Positions 56,322 through 63,865 of a stretch of 64,000 nt of DNA are shown here, one piece after another. Positions within the stretch are counted from its first letter, which is position 1; every line of letters starts with the position of its first letter. This DNA is from an uncultured Siphonobacter sp. Its GTDB lineage: Bacteria; Bacteroidota; Bacteroidia; Cytophagales; Spirosomataceae. The notes beneath the pieces were generated by a model. The model made no database searches. It was not told the DNA's origin and saw only the letters and a list, made by a program, of their open reading frames with translations. Position numbers and translations under genes: made by a program. The stretch spans positions 1 to 64,000 of the forward strand of contig CAJYIW010000017.1 in the NCBI GenBank assembly GCA_913775095.1, given 5' to 3'.

Positions 56322-57566
56322 TTATCCTTTTTTCCTGAAAGCCACGAAGTTATATACCCAGCCGTAAAGGACCACTCCAATCAGGGCCCAGGTGCCGAGC
56401 AGGTAGCCTAATCCAAGGTAGAAAAATCCGGCAATAACGGCCAGCGTGCCCAGACCAATAATCGCCCAGCTGACGACTTTAAACCACACCGGCAATTCAT
56501 CGGAATCGTGAATTACCCGGGATAAAGGTATAATGACCAGAAGACTGTACATGCCCAGAATAAACAGAGGCTCATACGATTGCAGGGCGTAATACGTTCC
56601 GAAAGCCAGTGCTCCGGTCAGTAGTGCCACGCCCGTCACGATTCCCAGCCATTTCTGTCGCTTTTCCAGAGCCAGTCTGCCGTAAGAATCCAGTTGCAGG
56701 ATGAGGTAACCAATCGGCATCATCACCCAGGTTAGATACATAAACAGAAAGATCAGCACCAGCACTACGTTCAGAATGGGAAACCGTTCGGAATACTGGC
56801 GAATCAGGTTCTGCCCAATCATTACCCCGATAATGACCGTCCATTGTACGCTCGACTGGTGGCGGTTCATGAAGAACAGGTAACTCAGGTAAGCCCGGTA
56901 CAGCGGATTTTTAGCTTTTACGGCTTCTTTGATCCCACTTTGGGCGTATTCGTAATTGGGATTGATTCGCAGGGATTCCGCGAAATGCTGACGGGCTTCC
57001 TGAACGTTTCCCCGCTCGAGCTTACTCCATCCCACGTTCGCCTGGGTGTAGGCATTATGCGGGTCCGCCGCCAGCGTATCTTCGATGGTACTTTCCAGTT
57101 CTTCGAGTCGCCCGAGTTTAGTTAGGGCTTCCGTTCGGGTATTGAGACTCCGTACGTGTTCGGGATCAATCGCTAAGCCCTGATCCGCGTAGAATAACCC
57201 CTTTTCCCAGTTTTTCTGAAGGTTGTGCAACGCTCCCAGCATACTGAAATAATCAGCATCCCAGGGATCCATTTCAATGGCCCGCAATAAGGCTTCTTCC
57301 GACTCTTTATACCGTCTGTTCAGCATCAGGGTAACGCCGTAGAAGTAATGAGACAGCGAATAATCGGGCCACATGCCCAGCATATCCTCCGCGGTTTCGA
57401 GAGCCGCCTGGTGCTGATCCGTTGAGATGTACGCCTGAATGAGCAAAGACAGGGCTTCCACATCTTCGGGGTATAAGACAAGCCACTGCCGTAACTCCTG
57501 AATCGCCTCCGATGCTCGGTTGAGATTCATTAACAGTCGGGCTTTGTGGAGTGAAGAGGATTCCAA
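56322..57566 (-). CDS. TPR-repeat protein with C-terminal multi-span membrane domain
   Basis: Protein of 414 residues. The first 225 residues are six or so tetratricopeptide repeats (for example YKESEEALLRAIEMDPWDAD, ARQHFAESLRINPNYEYAQS). A linker leads to about six transmembrane helices (about 245-410, including VLVLIFLFMYLTWVMMPIGY and LGIVTGVALLTGALAFGTYY). There is no signal peptide, so the TPR part faces the cytoplasm. It starts 31 bp after the stop of the TPR-AAA+ gene, so the two form an operon. The pairing suggests that the TPR domains of the two proteins form a membrane-tethered complex with the ATPase. I do not recognise a characterised homologue. Confidence 0.8.
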   Translation of the reverse strand: MESSSLHKARLLMNLNRASEAIQELRQWLVLYPEDVEALSLLIQAYISTDQHQAALETAEDMLGMWPDYSLSHYFYGVTLMLNRRYKESEEALLRAIEMDPWDADYFSMLGALHNLQKNWEKGLFYADQGLAIDPEHVRSLNTRTEALTKLGRLEELESTIEDTLAADPHNAYTQANVGWSKLERGNVQEARQHFAESLRINPNYEYAQSGIKEAVKAKNPLYRAYLSYLFFMNRHQSSVQWTVIIGVMIGQNLIRQYSERFPILNVVLVLIFLFMYLTWVMMPIGYLILQLDSYGRLALEKRQKWLGIVTGVALLTGALAFGTYYALQSYEPLFILGMYSLLVIIPLSRVIHDSDELPVWFKVVSWAIIGLGTLAVIAGFFYLGLGYLLGTWALIGVVLYGWVYNFVAFRKKG

Positions 57567-57597
57567 ATGAAGGTAGGTTTTAAGGGATTTTATTGTA

Positions 57598-58929
57598 TTA
57601 CTTCAGCTTCAGGTAGGTCAGAATATCGTCGTACAAACCGCTTTCATTCGAATAAAGAGCGTAATTCTTCGCCGTGGCAAACCATTCCTTTGTGGTGGGG
57701 CGGTGCTTTTTCAGGGCTTCCTTGAAATCAGAGGTCGTTAGGGGTAGTACTTTCCCTAACCGCAGCGATTCCGGCAACTTCTGTTCGACGGCAATGTCTA
57801 CCAAAGCCCGCAAATCAGCCCCTGAATAGCCATCGGATTGTTTGGCAACGTAGGCGTAATCAATGCTCTCGGCTGGTTTGTCTGCCATCAGAATTTTGAG
57901 GATATCAAGCCGTGCTTCAGCATCGGGCGGCGTTACAAATACAATGCGGTCAAATCGCCCCGGACGACGGAAGGCCGTATCCAGATACCAGGGCGTGTTG
58001 GTAGCTCCCAGAATCAGAATACCTTCGTTGCTGTATTTCACGCCATCCAGTTCGTCCAGAAACTGATTAATCAGGGTACGTCCTGCCGCTTTCCGTAAAT
58101 CCGTCCGGCTGGCTCCCAGAGCGTCCACTTCGTCAAAAAACAGAACACAGGGCGTATTCATCCGGGCCTGCTGGAACAGATCGTGAAGGTTCTTTTCCGA
58201 ATTTCCCATCCACATATCCAGCACATCATTAATGCCTACCGAAATAAAATTGGCCTTGATTTCCCCGGCCGTCGCCCGGGCCAGCAAGGTTTTTCCGCAA
58301 CCCGGAGGACCGTACAGCAGGATACCCCCGCCAATTTTTTTCCCGAATGCTTTATAGATTTCCGGGTTATTCATCGGATGAATCACCTTCAAGGCAATCT
58401 CCTCTTTCACGGCTGACAGCCCCCCTACTTCGGCAAACGTGACCCGGGGCTTTTCCACCAGCCCGGAACCTTCGGCTTCAATGCGGTCAATTTCTTCCTG
58501 AAAGGAGCTGGTCTGAGCCTGGCCGGAGTCACGAATGGCCTGATTGAGCTGACTTTCAAATTCAGCCTGCGTCAGACTATGATCCTGAGCGGTGGCTTTT
58601 TTGTAGTAAGCATTGGCAGCCGGTAAGTCATTCGAAGCCAGAGCAATACGAGCCAGTAAGAAAAGGATATTGGGCGAGGGATTCGTTTCCAGCAGCTCTT
58701 CGGCAATCACGTGAGCCGTCGGGTAATTGGCCAGTTGCAGGTAACATTCGGCGAGTTTTACTTTCAAATCAGGTTCGGCACTGAGCTGAAGGGCCGCTTT
58801 ATATTCTTCCAGAGCTTCGTCATAGCGGGCTAACTGAAAGTAGGCTTCGGCCAGCATTCGCCGGAGCGGAAGGTTTTGAGGCGAAAACTGAAGGGCTTCG
58901 CGTAAGGCATCGATCTGAGACTGATTCAT
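57598..58929 (-). CDS. TPR-repeat AAA+ ATPase (Cdc48/FtsH-like module)
   Basis: Cytoplasmic protein of 443 residues, started at ATG 58929; a TTG two codons upstream overlaps the promoter -7 box and is rejected. The N-terminal 120 residues are TPR repeats (AEAYFQLARYDEALEEYKAA). After a linker comes one classical AAA+ module: FAEVGGLSAVKEEI, Walker A GPPGCGKT (207-214), pore-loop segment MWMGNSEKNLHDLFQQAR, Walker B FFDEVD (264-269), sensor TNTPWYLDTAFRRPGRFDR with the arginine pair, and a C-terminal helical lid. It should form a hexamer that remodels or unfolds protein partners. The promoter geometry predicts a leaderless mRNA. The partner is probably the TPR-membrane protein encoded directly downstream. 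Confidence 0.9.
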   Translation of the reverse strand: MNQSQIDALREALQFSPQNLPLRRMLAEAYFQLARYDEALEEYKAALQLSAEPDLKVKLAECYLQLANYPTAHVIAEELLETNPSPNILFLLARIALASNDLPAANAYYKKATAQDHSLTQAEFESQLNQAIRDSGQAQTSSFQEEIDRIEAEGSGLVEKPRVTFAEVGGLSAVKEEIALKVIHPMNNPEIYKAFGKKIGGGILLYGPPGCGKTLLARATAGEIKANFISVGINDVLDMWMGNSEKNLHDLFQQARMNTPCVLFFDEVDALGASRTDLRKAAGRTLINQFLDELDGVKYSNEGILILGATNTPWYLDTAFRRPGRFDRIVFVTPPDAEARLDILKILMADKPAESIDYAYVAKQSDGYSGADLRALVDIAVEQKLPESLRLGKVLPLTTSDFKEALKKHRPTTKEWFATAKNYALYSNESGLYDDILTYLKLK

Positions 58930-58932
58930 GCC

Positions 58933-58962
58933 CAAATTTACTCCTTACACTTATTTCTTCAA
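58933..58962 (-). promoter_or_regulatory. Consensus Bacteroidota promoter of the AAA+ operon
   Basis: On the minus strand TTG (58962-58960), exactly 19 nt, then TAAATTTG (58940-58933): a perfect match to the Bacteroidota consensus. The last base of the -7 box is only 3 nt before the ATG at 58929, so transcription should start at or next to the start codon. Confidence 0.75.
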
Positions 58963-58998
58963 GGGTTATGGCTTTTAATCGAAAAACAGGTCTCTATA

Positions 58999-59044
58999 AA
59001 AAGAGGAATCCCGCAGCCTGGTGAAGCTGCGGGATTCCTCTTTT
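58999..59044 (-). terminator. 19-bp hairpin terminator of the second SDR gene
   Basis: Perfect 19-bp stem: left arm 58999-59017 (AAAAGAGGAATCCCGCAGC), right arm 59026-59044, with an 8-nt loop. The arm ends in A/T runs, so it works on the minus strand after the SDR stop at 59053. Confidence 0.92.
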
Positions 59045-59052
59045 AGTGTTTA

Positions 59053-59955
59053 TTAAATCGTGGGTCGGCCACCCGTTACCTGAATGGTAGCTCCGTTGAT
59101 GTAGCTGGAATCTTCGGAAGCCAGCAGTACATAAGCAGGAGCTAACTCAGCGGGCTGAGCGGCCCGGCCGATGGGTGTATCCTCCCCGAAAGTCTTCACT
59201 TTTTCAGCGGGCATGGTGGATGGAATCAGCGGAGTCCAGACCGGACCCGGAGCCACGCAGTTGACCCGAATGCCCTGCTTGGCAAAGGTTTGGGCGAGGT
59301 TACTCGTGAAGTTCTGAATGGCCCCTTTGGTCGTCGTATAGGCCAGCAAATTGGGCGAGGGCGAATAAGCGTTAACCGAAGTCGTGTTCACCACCGTACT
59401 GCCCGGTTTCATGTGCGGCTCCGCGGCTTTGCAGAGGTAGAACATGGCATAAATGTTCGTTTTGAACGTGTAGTCCCACTCTTCGCTGCTGATCTCCTGA
59501 ATGGACTCATGCGACATCTGGAAAGCAGCGTTGTTGACCAGAATATCAATCTGACCGAACTCGGCCACGGCTTTCTCGATGATGGCCTTGCAGTGAGCTT
59601 CTTCACTGATATCACCGGGCACTAATACCGCCTTTCTACCAGCTTCTTTAATGTACTTAGCCGTTTCTTCCGCGTCGTCGTCCTCATTCAGGTACGAAAT
59701 CAGAACGTCGGCTCCTTCACGGGCAAAGGCAATGGCCACGGCCCGGCCAATTCCGGAATCGCCCCCGGTGATGATGGCTTTCTTGCCTTCCAGTTTTCCG
59801 TGACCTTTATAAGAGTTTTCCCCGTGGTCGGGCGTGGGCGACATCTCTGACAAACGTCCGGGCACGTCCTGCTTTGTATTATCGTAGGGCGGCGTTGGGT
59901 ATTTTTCCTTGGGATCCTGCTGCGTTAAGGCTTGTGTTTCTGATAATAGTGTCAT
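59053..59955 (-). CDS. Short-chain dehydrogenase/reductase (YghA/YhdF-like), cytoplasmic
   Basis: SDR of 300 residues. The N-terminal extension (PKEKYPTPPYDNTKQDVPGR and MSPTPDHGENSYKGHGKLEG) is the same as in the exported paralogue at 18404-19405, but no Tat signal is present, so this copy stays in the cytoplasm. Cofactor loop TGGDSGIG (63-70), catalytic Ser193 and Y206-TTTK210 are all intact, and the C-terminus ends in VTGGRPTI. NNAA replaces the usual NNAG at 141-144, a tolerated change. Enzymes of this group reduce aldehydes or ketones and are often stress-induced. It is a single gene with a strong terminator. Confidence 0.92.
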   Translation of the reverse strand: MTLLSETQALTQQDPKEKYPTPPYDNTKQDVPGRLSEMSPTPDHGENSYKGHGKLEGKKAIITGGDSGIGRAVAIAFAREGADVLISYLNEDDDAEETAKYIKEAGRKAVLVPGDISEEAHCKAIIEKAVAEFGQIDILVNNAAFQMSHESIQEISSEEWDYTFKTNIYAMFYLCKAAEPHMKPGSTVVNTTSVNAYSPSPNLLAYTTTKGAIQNFTSNLAQTFAKQGIRVNCVAPGPVWTPLIPSTMPAEKVKTFGEDTPIGRAAQPAELAPAYVLLASEDSSYINGATIQVTGGRPTI

Positions 59956-60102: not shown

Positions 60103-60777
60103 TTATAACCAGATGTCCAGCTGAGCCCGGTACGACGAACCAATGGGAATCTGCCGGCCGCGTACCTGAATGTCCGAGCGTCCCATTCGTTCCACGTGCT
60201 GCCGATTCACCACAAAGGAACGGTGTACCCGCATGAAATTCCCCGCCGGCAGTAACTCCAGCAGTTCCGGCAAGGTACTTCGGATCAGCAGGGTTTGCTG
60301 AGCCTGGCACACTTTCACGTAGTTATCCGCCGACTCCAGATATAGCACCTGATCCGGTTGAATACTGACCCATTCGTAGCCATCCTTCACAAACAGGGGC
60401 GTTGAGGAACTGCCATTCCGGGGTTGACGATGGTCCTGAATTTTCTGGCAGGCCTGCAGGAATCGGTCAAAGGCAATGGGCTTCAGCAGATAATCCGACA
60501 CTTCCAGCTCGTAACCTTTCAGGGCGTGTTCGGGGTAAGCCGTGGTGAAAACTACGGCGGTCCGGCGGCGAAGAATTTCCGCCATTTCCAGACCGTTGAT
60601 GACGGGCATATTCACATCCAGAAAAATCAGATCGACGGATTGATTCTTCAGAAAATCCAGAGCTTTACGGGGATTGGTGAACGTCGCTTTCAATTCCAGA
60701 AAAGGTATCCGATCGGCGAAGGTCTGGATGATGTCCAGGGCAATGGGTTCATCATCTACGGCAATGCAGCTTATCAT
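60103..60777 (-). CDS. LytTR-family response regulator (LytR/AlgR type)
   Basis: DNA-binding response regulator of 224 residues. The receiver domain (about 1-120) has the acidic pair in IAVDDEP, phospho-acceptor Asp in LIFLDVNMP, Thr in VVFTTAYPE and Lys in YLLKPIA. The LytTR DNA-binding domain (about 125-224) shows VLYLESADNYVKV and NFMRVHRSFVVN. It follows the histidine kinase gene by 11 bp on the same strand, so the two form a two-component pair. LytTR proteins usually bind direct repeats upstream of their targets; none was identified here. Confidence 0.95.
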   Translation of the reverse strand: MISCIAVDDEPIALDIIQTFADRIPFLELKATFTNPRKALDFLKNQSVDLIFLDVNMPVINGLEMAEILRRRTAVVFTTAYPEHALKGYELEVSDYLLKPIAFDRFLQACQKIQDHRQPRNGSSSTPLFVKDGYEWVSIQPDQVLYLESADNYVKVCQAQQTLLIRSTLPELLELLPAGNFMRVHRSFVVNRQHVERMGRSDIQVRGRQIPIGSSYRAQLDIWL

Positions 60778-60788
60778 GAATTGGCAGA

Positions 60789-62591
60789 TTAGTTCGTTTC
60801 CAGTTGAATCAGTAAATCAATCCGAAAGGTTTGTTCATCGGCAATGATTTGCAGGGTATGTTGAGCCGGATAGATTAATTCCAGCCGTTTTTGAACGTTA
60901 CGCAGCCCGATTCCTGATTTTTCCTGCAAGATGGTTTTAGGTACTACTGAATTCGCGAGGTGCATGGATAACTGATTCTCCGTCAGGTTCAGGTTCAGAT
61001 GAATCCAGCAGGGAGCATCCGTTCGAATGCCGTACTGAAACGCATTTTCAATGAATGGAATCAGGAGCATGGGAGCCATGTGCAGCGAAGGAATATACGA
61101 AGGAAATTCCGTTTGAATAGCAATGTCTGCATCGTTGGGTAGCCGTTTTCGCTGGAATTTAATGTATTCTTTGATGAATTGAATTTCTTCGTATAGAGGA
61201 ACTTTTGTTCTCGCATCAGTTTCCTCCACATACTTCATCAAACCCACAAGCTGTTGCAAACTCTCTTCGGTTAGCGTACCTTTCAACTGCGTTTCTGTCC
61301 GTACTAAATTACGTAGCTGAGTCAATAACTGACTATTTGTATCGTATTTTTTCTGTCTTTTTAATTGCCTTTCCAGGTTTTTAGTCTGATAGACCCACAG
61401 CACTGAAGTATAAACAATAGCGGAACACAAGTAAGGGAAAAAGCTCGTTATCCATATAATAGTTGTACCCTTAATAATACCTGCATAAAATTCCGCATTA
61501 AATGCTCTTTCCCATAGATGTTTTACTCCAGCTTTGTTAACTGAAAGTATGGCATAGCGGGAATGATTATTAATTAATGCGACGTTTAGTTCGTTCTGAA
61601 TGTTCATTACCATCCAGTACAGGAAGGCCATTCCATACATAATAAGTAAGTATAAAGGCAATTTATAAAACACTTCTTTAAGCTTACTGGTATTAAGCCA
61701 TAAGGGGGCAAAAACTTTTTCAAAATGTATCACGGAAAACACCGCAAGCAGTAAAGCATTCACGAATACACCATTAGGATTAAGCATCATTTTATAACAT
61801 ACCTCACTCGAATATTTACCTGAAACCGTTTCACTGAATACGAGAGATACAACAATGCTACGCAGAAAAAAAAGGAGCCCAATGATGATCGCTGTAGTAT
61901 AAATGATTCTACTTCTGGCTTCGTGCATTTGAGGTTCATTAGAAGGAAAAAGGACTTTCGTACGGGCCTGCTGGCTAATCTTTTGTATGGAATCCGCCAG
62001 CTTGGTTAAGTTATCTTTGATTGATTGTCCATAAATGGTATTCAGTGCATTGTATAAAAAGTGGGGATTGATCTGTGATTTAAGTAACGCCAGCTCAGCT
62101 TGTCGATTGGAAATCAATAACTTTTTTCGCTTTTCATACACATCCACTAATAGATACACAAACCCCGAAATCAGGAATAATAAAACATAGTGTAAGGATC
62201 CCGTCAGTATTACTTTTCGCTCGGGCTCACTTCGCATGCCTCTTTCAAAAAGTTTAATAGTTTCGTTCAAATCAACAACAGCAGCAAGATATTCAGTAAT
62301 GTCATGGGTAGCCTGATTACCTATGGACAAGTCTACTATTATGCTTATGCTTAAAACAAGAAAGAATAACAGAATCTTTACCAGGTATTTCCCCCCGTAT
62401 TCTCCCTTAAAAACCGGATTAATGAGTAATCGATAACTCACATATCCCATCGTAGAATATAATAAAGCAAACAGACTATGCTTTATATAGAAAGACCCTT
62501 CATGTTCGCCAATGATGGTTATTTGAAAAAATAGTACGATTACGCAAACCTGGGCGAAAAAGACGAGTAAATGGCGTGGGAGACTTAGCAT
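60789..62591 (-). CDS. LytS-type sensor histidine kinase with a membrane module inserted between H-box and ATPase
   Basis: Protein of 600 residues with unusual order. Module 1: four transmembrane helices (about 8-27, 37-57, 71-90, 130-150), then the phospho-acceptor box AELALLKSQINPHFLYNALN (His177). Instead of the ATPase domain, a second membrane module follows (helices about 229-251, 274-291, 311-331, 372-398). After it comes a helical stretch where a second H-box would be expected (LERQLKRQKKYDTNSQLLTQ) but no PHFL-N is present, then the usual post-H-box part (LMKYVEETDARTKVPLYEEI) and the HATPase with N-box IPFIENAFQYG and G-box GIGLRN. It looks like a fusion of two kinases, one without ATPase and one without H-box. 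It pairs with the LytTR regulator 11 bp downstream. Confidence 0.88.
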   Translation of the reverse strand: MLSLPRHLLVFFAQVCVIVLFFQITIIGEHEGSFYIKHSLFALLYSTMGYVSYRLLINPVFKGEYGGKYLVKILLFFLVLSISIIVDLSIGNQATHDITEYLAAVVDLNETIKLFERGMRSEPERKVILTGSLHYVLLFLISGFVYLLVDVYEKRKKLLISNRQAELALLKSQINPHFLYNALNTIYGQSIKDNLTKLADSIQKISQQARTKVLFPSNEPQMHEARSRIIYTTAIIIGLLFFLRSIVVSLVFSETVSGKYSSEVCYKMMLNPNGVFVNALLLAVFSVIHFEKVFAPLWLNTSKLKEVFYKLPLYLLIMYGMAFLYWMVMNIQNELNVALINNHSRYAILSVNKAGVKHLWERAFNAEFYAGIIKGTTIIWITSFFPYLCSAIVYTSVLWVYQTKNLERQLKRQKKYDTNSQLLTQLRNLVRTETQLKGTLTEESLQQLVGLMKYVEETDARTKVPLYEEIQFIKEYIKFQRKRLPNDADIAIQTEFPSYIPSLHMAPMLLIPFIENAFQYGIRTDAPCWIHLNLNLTENQLSMHLANSVVPKTILQEKSGIGLRNVQKRLELIYPAQHTLQIIADEQTFRIDLLIQLETN

Positions 62592-62827: not shown

Positions 62828-63865
62828 ATTGGTATCAAGGATATAGCCCGGCACGCGAATGTGTCCATTGGCCCGGTCGATCGTGTGTTGCACAATCGGG
62901 GGGGCGTATCCAAAGCGACCCGGGAGCGTATTCTCAAAGCCATTGAGGAGCTGAACTATCAGCCAAACATCCTGGCCAGCCGCCTTAAATCCAGCAAGCA
63001 ATATTCACTGGCGATTCTGGTTCCCCGGGCTACGGATGCCATTCCGTTCTGGCACGAGCATGCCGTAGGCGTGGATCAGGCCGAAAAGGAAATACGGCAG
63101 TTTGACGTTTCCACCAAACTCTTTTTCTTCGATCAGAACAGTGAAGCTTCTTTCCGGGAAAGCGTAGATGAGATCATCGCTGATAATATCGACGGGGTGT
63201 TCATGGTTCCGGTCTTTTATACCGATGCGATCCGGCTACTACACGCCTGCAGAAAGCGGCAGATTCCCTGCCTGCTTTTCGATACCAATCTTCCTGACCT
63301 TGACGACCTTAGCTTTATCGGGCAAAATGCGTTTGACAGTGGTTTCCTGGCCGGAGAGTTACTCTTTCAGTGCCTGCCCGCCGATGCCTCCATCCTGGTG
63401 GTGAACATCGTTCGGGAACACGATAACCATTTGCAGTTCAGCAAACGGGAAGAAGGCTTTCGAGCCTTTTTTCAGCAACATCAGCCTCAGGTGCTTCTGC
63501 ACAAATTTGAATCCCGCCAGGGAATGAATCCAGACGTTGAGAAAGCCTTGCTTGCTGAACTGACCCAATCGCCTTCCATTCATTCCATCTTTGCGACCAA
63601 TGGGATTCAGTACGTAGCTCAACTGTTTGAAAAACAGGGTATTCGAACCTATAAATTGCTTGGCTACGATATTATCCCCGATACCGTTGAATACTTGCAG
63701 AAAGAATACATTCAGTTTTTGATTAGTCAGCAACCCAAGACGCAGGTGTACGAGGGAATCAAATTACTGTATCAGCACATCATTCTCAAACAGAACCTGG
63801 AGCGTAACTATTTCCTGCCGATTGACATCGTGATGAAATCCAATCTGAAGTATTACGTGAAATGA
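62828..63865 (+). CDS. LacI-family transcriptional regulator
   Basis: Regulator of about 345 residues. The LacI helix-turn-helix is GIKDIARHANVSIGPVDRVL followed by HNRGGVSKATRERILKAIEE and LNYQPN; the rest is a periplasmic-binding-protein-like effector domain (SLAILVPRATDAIPFWHEHA to PIDIVMKSNLKYYV). The start is a problem: the first standard start codon in frame is GTG at 62861, inside the recognition region, which would remove half of the DNA-binding motif. Upstream in the same frame there are only ATT codons at 62828 and 62795. I place the start at 62828 provisionally. Related proteins respond to sugars; it faces, tail to tail, a probable sugar esterase gene. It is divergent from the histidine kinase gene. 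Confidence 0.87.
   Translation: MGIKDIARHANVSIGPVDRVLHNRGGVSKATRERILKAIEELNYQPNILASRLKSSKQYSLAILVPRATDAIPFWHEHAVGVDQAEKEIRQFDVSTKLFFFDQNSEASFRESVDEIIADNIDGVFMVPVFYTDAIRLLHACRKRQIPCLLFDTNLPDLDDLSFIGQNAFDSGFLAGELLFQCLPADASILVVNIVREHDNHLQFSKREEGFRAFFQQHQPQVLLHKFESRQGMNPDVEKALLAELTQSPSIHSIFATNGIQYVAQLFEKQGIRTYKLLGYDIIPDTVEYLQKEYIQFLISQQPKTQVYEGIKLLYQHIILKQNLERNYFLPIDIVMKSNLKYYVK

What the first reader, a model, noticed from the sequence alone, without database searches (positions are those of the whole stretch)
60789..62591. Histidine kinase with H-box and ATPase separated by a second membrane domain
Seen: His177 in QINPHFLYNALN follows four membrane helices, then a second set of four helices (about 229-398) intervenes before the rest of the dimerisation region and HATPase (N-box 511-521, G-box 560-565). 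The expected second H-box (around 415-440) lacks the PHF motif. Known: LytS-type kinases place the H-box directly before the ATPase. Inference: this is a fusion of two kinases with complementary losses, so phosphorylation would have to occur between the two halves or between subunits. Both halves keep an ARTKV string at the equivalent place (209-213 and 460-464 approximately) but with different codons, which argues for an old rather than recent event.
Basis: partly seen in the sequence, partly recalled or inferred. Interest (0 to 1): 0.72.

Follow-up and report, generated by a model that had tools for sequence, protein, structure and literature searches.

The report
Sensor kinase split by second membrane domain
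A bacterial sensor protein carries two tandem copies of a membrane sensor: the first kept only the phosphate-accepting histidine, the second kept only the ATP-using engine, so the two halves probably have to work together, an unusual wiring seen here in two related genera.

Summary
Window 60789-62591(-) encodes a 600-aa LytS/PF06580-type kinase in which PF06580 is broken: profile 1-47, with His177, follows helices 1-4; profile 30-79 and the ATPase follow helices 5-8. The second H-box has no histidine. It is not an assembly error: full-length homologues occur in Siphonobacter G002 and in two genomes of a second genus (G138, G140), beside related regulators, and H177 is the only histidine invariant in the four proteins. 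Their ATPases form one clade. The two membrane modules are alike in G138/G140, so tandem duplication with complementary losses is likely. In a third genus (G117, G119) complementary losses sit on two adjacent overlapping genes, a separate two-protein version. Of 75 held ATPase-bearing ORFs only these two kinds lack the histidine. The ARTKV argument fails. Most likely the module-2 ATPase phosphorylates His177, within a chain or across a dimer, and the phosphate passes to the adjacent LytTR regulator; chemistry and geometry are inferred. Verdict: a new variant of LytS-type kinase, an in-chain split kinase, not described in the listings of the papers searched.

The parts
60789..62591 (-). Two-module LytS-type histidine kinase, 600 aa
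   Evidence: ORF; PF06580 in two separated stretches; full-length homologues G002, G138, G140
62139..62567 (-). Module 1 membrane domain, TM1-TM4 (residues 9-151)
   Evidence: Hydropathy averaged over four full-length proteins
61953..62135 (-). Module 1 DHp hairpin (residues 153-213) with intact H-box; no ATPase follows
   Evidence: PF06580 profile 1-47; residues 173-190: 12 of 18 invariant in four proteins
62061..62063 (-). His177 codon, predicted phospho-acceptor
   Evidence: Only histidine column invariant in the four full-length proteins; codon CAC
61413..61892 (-). Module 2 membrane domain, TM5-TM8 (residues 234-393)
   Evidence: Hydropathy; similar to module 1 by profile comparison
61296..61412 (-). 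Degenerate DHp helix 1 of module 2 (residues 394-432), no histidine; possible relict NPY in G002 and BAB-5405
61140..61295 (-). Module 2 DHp helix 2 and linker (residues 433-484)
   Evidence: PF06580 profile 30-79 at residues 437-486
60792..61139 (-). GHKL ATPase domain (residues 485-600)
   Evidence: Homology to ordinary LytS ATPase domains; HATPase_c_5 only below its cut-off; solved histidine kinase 6swj matches residues 172-195, 445-524 and 558-581 in that order
61008..61067 (-). N-box region (residues 509-528)
   Evidence: 18 of 20 residues invariant in four proteins
60882..60917 (-). G-box region (residues 559-570)
   Evidence: 9 of 12 residues invariant in four proteins
60103..60777 (-). 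Probable cognate LytTR-type response regulator, 11 bp downstream of the kinase
   Evidence: Response_reg and LytTR domains; 59-61% identical to the regulators beside the G138/G140 kinases, 40-48% to five ordinary partners

Best explanation
A LytS-type (PF06580) sensor kinase that probably arose by tandem duplication of a 4-TM kinase, followed by complementary losses. Module 1 (TM1-4 plus DHp) lost its ATPase but kept the phospho-acceptor His177. Module 2 (TM5-8 plus degenerate DHp plus GHKL ATPase) lost its histidine but kept the engine. Shown: the architecture, its recurrence in two genera, one ATPase clade, and conservation of both catalytic pieces. Inferred: the module-2 ATPase phosphorylates His177, either within one chain (the two hairpins packing side by side like the two protomers of an ordinary dimer) or across a dimer, and the phosphate then goes to the LytTR regulator encoded 11 bp downstream. 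Because two separate 4-TM domains flank the two reaction partners, the output could depend on both inputs.
For: PF06580 is split with an overlap of profile 30-47, contiguous in 5 of 5 ordinary relatives. Three full-length homologues besides the window, plus in-frame pieces of a fourth. H177 is the only invariant histidine among the four full-length proteins. Conservation is concentrated in H-box 1 (12 of 18), N-box (18 of 20) and G-box (9 of 12), against 11 of 151 and 10 of 160 in the two membrane domains. dN/dS between G002 and BAB-5405 is about 0.15 (DHp1 piece, 43 codons), 0.16 (module 2) and 0.10 (ATPase piece), from the dN and dS. ATPase domains of the four form one clade: 100/98, 98/94 with four more rows added. 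Module 1 against module 2: Smith-Waterman 98 in G138 and 84 in G140, 0 of 500 shuffles as high in either; profile-profile P 3.7e-6 over 141 columns. Each full-length kinase is followed by its regulator at 11-30 bp. A two-protein counterpart in a third genus: in G117 and G119 a kinase with intact N- and G-box but NPPF in place of NPHF overlaps a kinase with intact NPHF but no N-box ENA and no G-box, followed by a response regulator. Among 75 held ORFs with ATPase motifs, the 8 rows without PH at the H-box place are these two-module proteins (6 rows, 4 proteins) and the two G117/G119 kinases. TM-to-His distance in module 1 (149 to 177) and TM-to-equivalent-place distance in module 2 (393 to 420) are alike, 28 and 27 residues (positions).
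Against: Module 1 against module 2 similarity is weak in the window protein (11 of 500 shuffles as high) and absent in G002 (446 of 500); in those two, ordinary kinases score as high as or higher than the other module. The N-terminal tree does not make the modules sisters. The alignment of the second H-box is ambiguous: hhalign prefers a deletion rather than a changed histidine. G138/G140 have a histidine in helix 1 of module 2, aligned with Lys414 of the window. The BAB-5405 kinase is read in three frames and the G002 regulator in two, by sequencing error or decay. The distribution is patchy: no match at E <= 1e-30 in 2 of 6 Siphonobacter genomes and none at 1e-50 in 7 of 9 genomes of the second genus. 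In the G117/G119 pair the gene order is reversed (ATPase kinase first) and its ATPase falls in another clade, so it is an analogue, not an intermediate.
Confidence: 0.74

Rival explanations
1. Module 1 is a phosphotransfer or phosphatase unit charged or used by another kinase, and the module-2 ATPase serves another partner; the halves are physically joined but not reaction partners.
For: The genome has several ordinary LytS-type kinases that could phosphorylate in trans. Split kinases on separate proteins are known (PMC3591291, abstract and Discussion read).
Against: Both pieces are retained together in all four full-length proteins, with a regulator that is conserved with the kinase.
Confidence: 0.13
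2. A pseudokinase sensor, like DivL, that binds its response regulator without phosphorylating it.
For: Module 2 has Tyr (G002, BAB-5405) near the histidine place, as DivL has Tyr550 (PMC4211667, passages read).
Against: Unlike DivL the chain still has an intact H-box with invariant His177, and N- and G-boxes are strongly conserved.
Confidence: 0.08
3. A histidine in helix 1 of module 2 (present in G138 and G140, aligned with Lys414 of the window) is the real acceptor and module 1 is a relict.
For: That histidine is shared by the two genomes of the second genus.
Against: It is Lys in both Siphonobacter full-length proteins and stands outside any NPHF-type motif, whereas the module-1 H-box is conserved in all four.
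Confidence: 0.04
4. Assembly or annotation artefact joining two genes.
For: None found.
Against: Same order of parts in four genomes of two genera, full length and uninterrupted.
Confidence: 0.01

Closest known systems
LytS-type sensor kinases (Pfam PF06580 His_kinase, paired with LytTR regulators)
   Same: 4-TM domain, NPHF-type H-box, DHp and GHKL ATPase motifs, LytTR response regulator next door
   Different: H-box and ATPase separated by a second 4-TM domain; distance 337-339 instead of 91-95; second H-box lost
Two-protein complementary LytS-type pair found here in G117 and G119 (not found in print, but not searched for by name)
   Same: One module gives the histidine, the other the ATPase; response regulator next
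   Different: Two overlapping genes in the order ATPase kinase, acceptor kinase; ATPase in another clade
Split kinases CheA3/CheA4 of Rhodobacter sphaeroides (PMC3591291)
   Same: Phospho-acceptor and ATPase functions assigned to different modules
   Different: There on two proteins of the CheA kind; here on one membrane polypeptide of the LytS kind
DivL pseudokinase of Caulobacter (PMC4211667)
   Same: A DHp domain that lost its histidine (Tyr in DivL; Tyr in two of the relatives here)
   Different: Here the same chain has another, intact H-box; that DivL has none is my reading of the passages seen
Intermolecular complementation of defective EnvZ or CheA mutants (Yang and Inouye 1991; Swanson 1993; seen only as reference-list entries in PMC4734776 and PMC5956149, content recalled)
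   Same: One subunit gives the histidine and the other the ATPase
   Different: Laboratory mutants in a mixed dimer; here natural and covalently joined

Membership tests
LytS-type histidine kinase (PF06580) | PF06580 match above the gathering score | tested here: met
   65.5 bits against 25.2, in two stretches; pieces 45.1 and 28.1 bits. In G002 the second piece alone is below it, 22.2 bits
LytS-type histidine kinase (PF06580) | H-box directly followed by DHp helix 2 and ATPase | tested here: not met
   His-to-ENA distance 337-339 against 91-95 in ordinary members
LytS-type histidine kinase (PF06580) | GHKL ATPase with N-box and G-box | tested here: met
   ENAFQYG and GIGL invariant in four full-length proteins; no Pfam ATPase model passes its cut-off, nor in the five ordinary relatives
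LytS-type histidine kinase (PF06580) | Polytopic membrane sensor domain | tested here: met
   Eight hydropathy peaks, 4 plus 4; topology not measured
LytS-type histidine kinase (PF06580) | Partner LytTR response regulator | tested here: met
   Adjacent gene with Response_reg and LytTR; relatives of it beside G002, G138 and G140 kinases
LytS-type histidine kinase (PF06580) | Autophosphorylation on the H-box histidine | not testable with these tools
   Needs biochemistry
Split kinase (CheA3/CheA4 kind) | Acceptor and ATPase on separate proteins | tested here: not met
   One uninterrupted frame of 600-602 aa in four genomes
Pseudokinase (DivL kind) | No phosphorylatable H-box histidine in the chain | tested here: not met
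   H177 in an NPHF-type H-box, invariant in four

The most novel reading that the evidence does not exclude
A single-chain, asymmetric histidine-kinase 'dimer': duplication has put both protomers of a LytS-type dimer into one polypeptide and divided the labour. One half is only acceptor and the other only ATPase, each under its own 4-TM domain, so that the protein can act as a built-in two-input gate without homodimerising. The two-gene complementary pair in G117/G119 would be the heterodimeric solution to the same problem.
Probability: 0.35. Interest if true: 0.75.

Novelty: new variant of a known kind. Interest (0 to 1): 0.62.

Why it matters
Histidine kinases are normally symmetric homodimers, which makes it hard to separate the roles of acceptor and ATPase subunits or to ask whether phosphorylation runs in cis or in trans. 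Here evolution has made the two roles distinct within one chain and given each its own membrane domain; in a related genus it has done so with two separate proteins. These are natural test cases for how membrane sensors drive the DHp and ATPase domains, for how kinase dimers become asymmetric, and for two-input signalling. The case also warns that Pfam reports one His_kinase domain in two stretches where there are two incomplete ones.

Tried and rejected
Rejected: assembly artefact (independent homologues). Rejected: ARTKV as an equivalent relic (profile positions 45 and 53, not conserved). Rejected as further two-module kinases: the other rows of the family-wide profile search. One search gave 24 of 222 genomes with 25 match rows; 5 rows in 5 genomes are the two-module cases. 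The other 20 rows in 19 genomes: L111 and L113 are ordinary 392-aa kinases; I fetched the places of the other 18. Of these, 14 of 18 show distance 95; L132 shows 95 to its first ENA match though the script printed 126 from its last one; L133 is an ordinary 341-aa kinase with LNPHV, and L134 and L135 turned out to hold the complementary gene pairs of G117 and G119. Three weaker hits of a single-sequence search (G050, G177, G101; E 4e-4 to 0.0097, each with stops inside) were not read.

Led nowhere: profile comparison of modules with two and three sequences (no signal; a signal came with four and five); an N-terminal tree (modules fall into an unresolved fork); a multi-fragment alignment meant for structure prediction (MAFFT placed fragments in the wrong module). 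NCBIfam gave no family for the kinase at a meaningful score. Ten paper searches in the open-licence library: looked for this architecture, family or genus and showed no description of it in the titles and abstract starts listed (0, 2, 6, 0, 0, 2 and 0 papers); some searches looked for comparators. The claim of no description rests on these listings only. No search was left for the G117/G119 pair.

Because of that pair I raised the confidence of the best explanation from 0.70 to 0.74 and the interest from 0.57 to 0.62, and lowered the first rival from 0.15 to 0.13; other odds stand.

Full report
WHAT IS THERE. The minus-strand ORF 60789-62591 encodes 600 aa. The genome belongs to Siphonobacter: a genus-mate, G004, holds a 4318-base contig with the same ORFs as the contig that names Siphonobacter sp. 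BAB-5405. Eleven bases downstream lies a 224-aa response regulator with receiver and LytTR domains.

ANATOMY. Hydropathy averaged over four full-length proteins gives eight clear peaks, 4 + 4, separated by about 83 residues that hold the H-box. Pfam PF06580 (81 positions) is broken in two: positions 1-47 at residues 165-211 and positions 30-79 at residues 437-486. In five ordinary relatives run in the same call it is one contiguous match. The ATPase follows only the second half. Its N-box and G-box are intact by alignment; no Pfam ATPase model passes its cut-off here or in those five ordinary relatives. The distance from the H-box histidine to the N-box ENA is 338, 337, 339 and 337 in window, G002, G138 and G140. 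It is 91-95 in 42 of 49 ordinary ORFs; 7 of 49 did not fit my strict pattern (printed values corrected by one). The one solved structure with a meaningful sequence match, 6swj, aligns in three separated pieces: residues 172-195, 445-524 and 558-581.

THE SECOND H-BOX. No histidine lies in residues 394-503 of the window protein. In G002 and BAB-5405 the place reads SNPY, as if NPH had become NPY; the window has TNSQ, and G138/G140 have AQN. hhalign instead favours loss of about nine residues. Either way the H-box is gone. H177 is the only histidine column invariant in the four full-length proteins. G138 and G140 share another histidine in helix 1 of module 2, but both full-length Siphonobacter proteins have Lys there.

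RECURRENCE. Within the genus, 4 of 6 genomes match at E <= 1e-30. G000 and G002 are full length. G004 is a draft whose gene runs through three frames and was read as separate pieces. G005 is cut by a contig end, so its module 1 is unseen. A profile of the middle module found two more full-length proteins (602 and 600 aa) in a second genus of the same family, G138 and G140: 2 of 9 genomes of that genus. Of the other 20 match rows in that search of 222 family genomes, 18 are ordinary kinases and 2 belong to the gene pairs described below. A profile of TM5-8 alone matched only G000 and G002 in 390 genomes of the order; G138 and G140 were not among the matches and so were probably not drawn. It matched only G000 in 335 of the class. 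The middle-module profile matched 4 of 395 genomes of the phylum at E <= 1e-6: G000 in full and three partial matches in frames of 347-384 aa. A full-length profile matched 214 of 390 order genomes at E <= 1e-25; only G000 and G002 are full length among the rows listed, but that list is cut and only three candidates per genome were scored. The middle module diverges fast (18-28% identity to the window), so more distant or convergent cases may be missed.

ORIGIN. The ATPase domains of the four full-length proteins form one clade among 56 rows, 100/98, and among 60 rows, 98/94, so the architecture probably arose once. In G138 and G140 the two membrane modules are still alike: Smith-Waterman 98 and 84, none of 500 shuffles as high in either. 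The signal is weak in the window (11 of 500) and absent in G002 (446 of 500). Profile against profile gives P 3.7e-6 over 141 columns, colinear. Apart from their own kind, the G138/G140 modules match each other ahead of every ordinary kinase in the set; the window and G002 modules do not. An N-terminal tree keeps module 1 and module 2 as two solid clades in an unresolved fork. Tandem duplication is therefore favoured but not proven over fusion of two related kinases.

SELECTION. Between G002 and BAB-5405, dN/dS from the values is about 0.15 for the DHp1 piece (43 codons), 0.16 for module 2 and 0.10 for the ATPase piece. Window against G002: 18 of 19 H-box residues and 24 of 25 N-box residues are identical, against 44 of 152 in TM1-4 and 46 of 170 in TM5-8. 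Over all four: H-box 12 of 18, N-box 18 of 20, membrane domains 11 of 151 and 10 of 160. Both halves of the chemistry are kept while the sensors drift. The regulators are conserved with the kinases: 59-61% between window and G138/G140, 40-48% to five ordinary partners.

A TWO-PROTEIN COUNTERPART. In a third genus of the family, G117 and G119 (2 of 5 genomes searched) carry two overlapping LytS-type genes followed by a response regulator. The first protein (401 / 383 aa) has NPPF where NPHF is expected, with intact ENAFKYG and GLGL motifs. The second (366 aa in both) has intact NPHFLFN but DHAL in place of the N-box ENA and no G-box match. PF06580 is contiguous in all four proteins. Their intact ATPases group with ordinary kinases of other genera and not with the two-module clade, and the gene order is reversed, so this is a separate complementary loss. 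Among 75 distinct held ORFs with ATPase motifs, 8 rows lack PH at the H-box place: the two-module proteins (6 rows, 4 proteins) and the two first kinases of G117/G119; the other 67 keep it. In this set, then, an ATPase kinase has lost its histidine only where an intact H-box stands beside it.

MECHANISM. The simplest reading is that the ATPase of module 2 phosphorylates His177 of module 1. In both modules the histidine level lies 27-28 residues from the last membrane helix (positions), so the two hairpins could stand at equal height and pack like the two protomers of a normal dimer. This geometry is inferred, since structure prediction was off. Whether the reaction is within a chain or across a dimer is open.

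The architecture and the complementary losses are right. The ARTKV argument is wrong: by the ungapped Pfam ranges the strings stand at profile positions 45 and 53, and neither is conserved in homologues.

COMPARISON. It works like a split kinase (CheA3/CheA4, PMC3591291, abstract and Discussion read) but is not one by definition, since both parts are in one chain; the G117/G119 pair would fit that definition within the LytS kind. It is not a DivL-type pseudokinase (PMC4211667, passages read), since an intact H-box is present. It is a derived LytS-type kinase that fails one defining feature, the contiguous DHp-ATPase order. I call it a new variant of a known kind.

Noticed in passing
L141:3187-6341 (G117) and L142:2613-5588 (G119): Two overlapping LytS-type genes with complementary losses (NPPF with intact ATPase motifs; NPHF without N- and G-box), followed by a response regulator: a two-protein split kinase. 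Overlap 4 bp in G117 and 7 bp in G119.
   Followed up: partly
L102:3210-3950 (G002): The response regulator next to the G002 kinase stops at 172 aa; the rest of the LytTR domain continues in another frame. Sequencing error or decay not distinguished.
   Followed up: partly
L031:3-1271 (Siphonobacter sp. BAB-5405): The two-module kinase gene of this draft genome runs through three frames, while its regulator is intact.
   Followed up: partly
L066, L070, L072, L074, L078-L083, L123, L124, L126, L128, L131: Another LytS-type architecture in this order: about eight hydrophobic segments in a row before a normal H-box and ATPase (distance 94-95), 469-564 aa.
   Followed up: no
L105:2062-3525 and L099:1029-2483: A TlpA/thioredoxin-like protein of 487 and 484 aa is encoded between a LytS-type kinase and its regulator in G002 and G001 (family named from recall of sequence features).
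   Followed up: no
window 56322-59955 and L101: The short-chain dehydrogenase gene beside the regulator, and the two genes beyond it, are in the same order in G005.
   Followed up: partly
window 62861-63865: A LacI-type transcription factor (named from recall of sequence features) is divergent from the kinase, listed from a GTG start.
   Followed up: no
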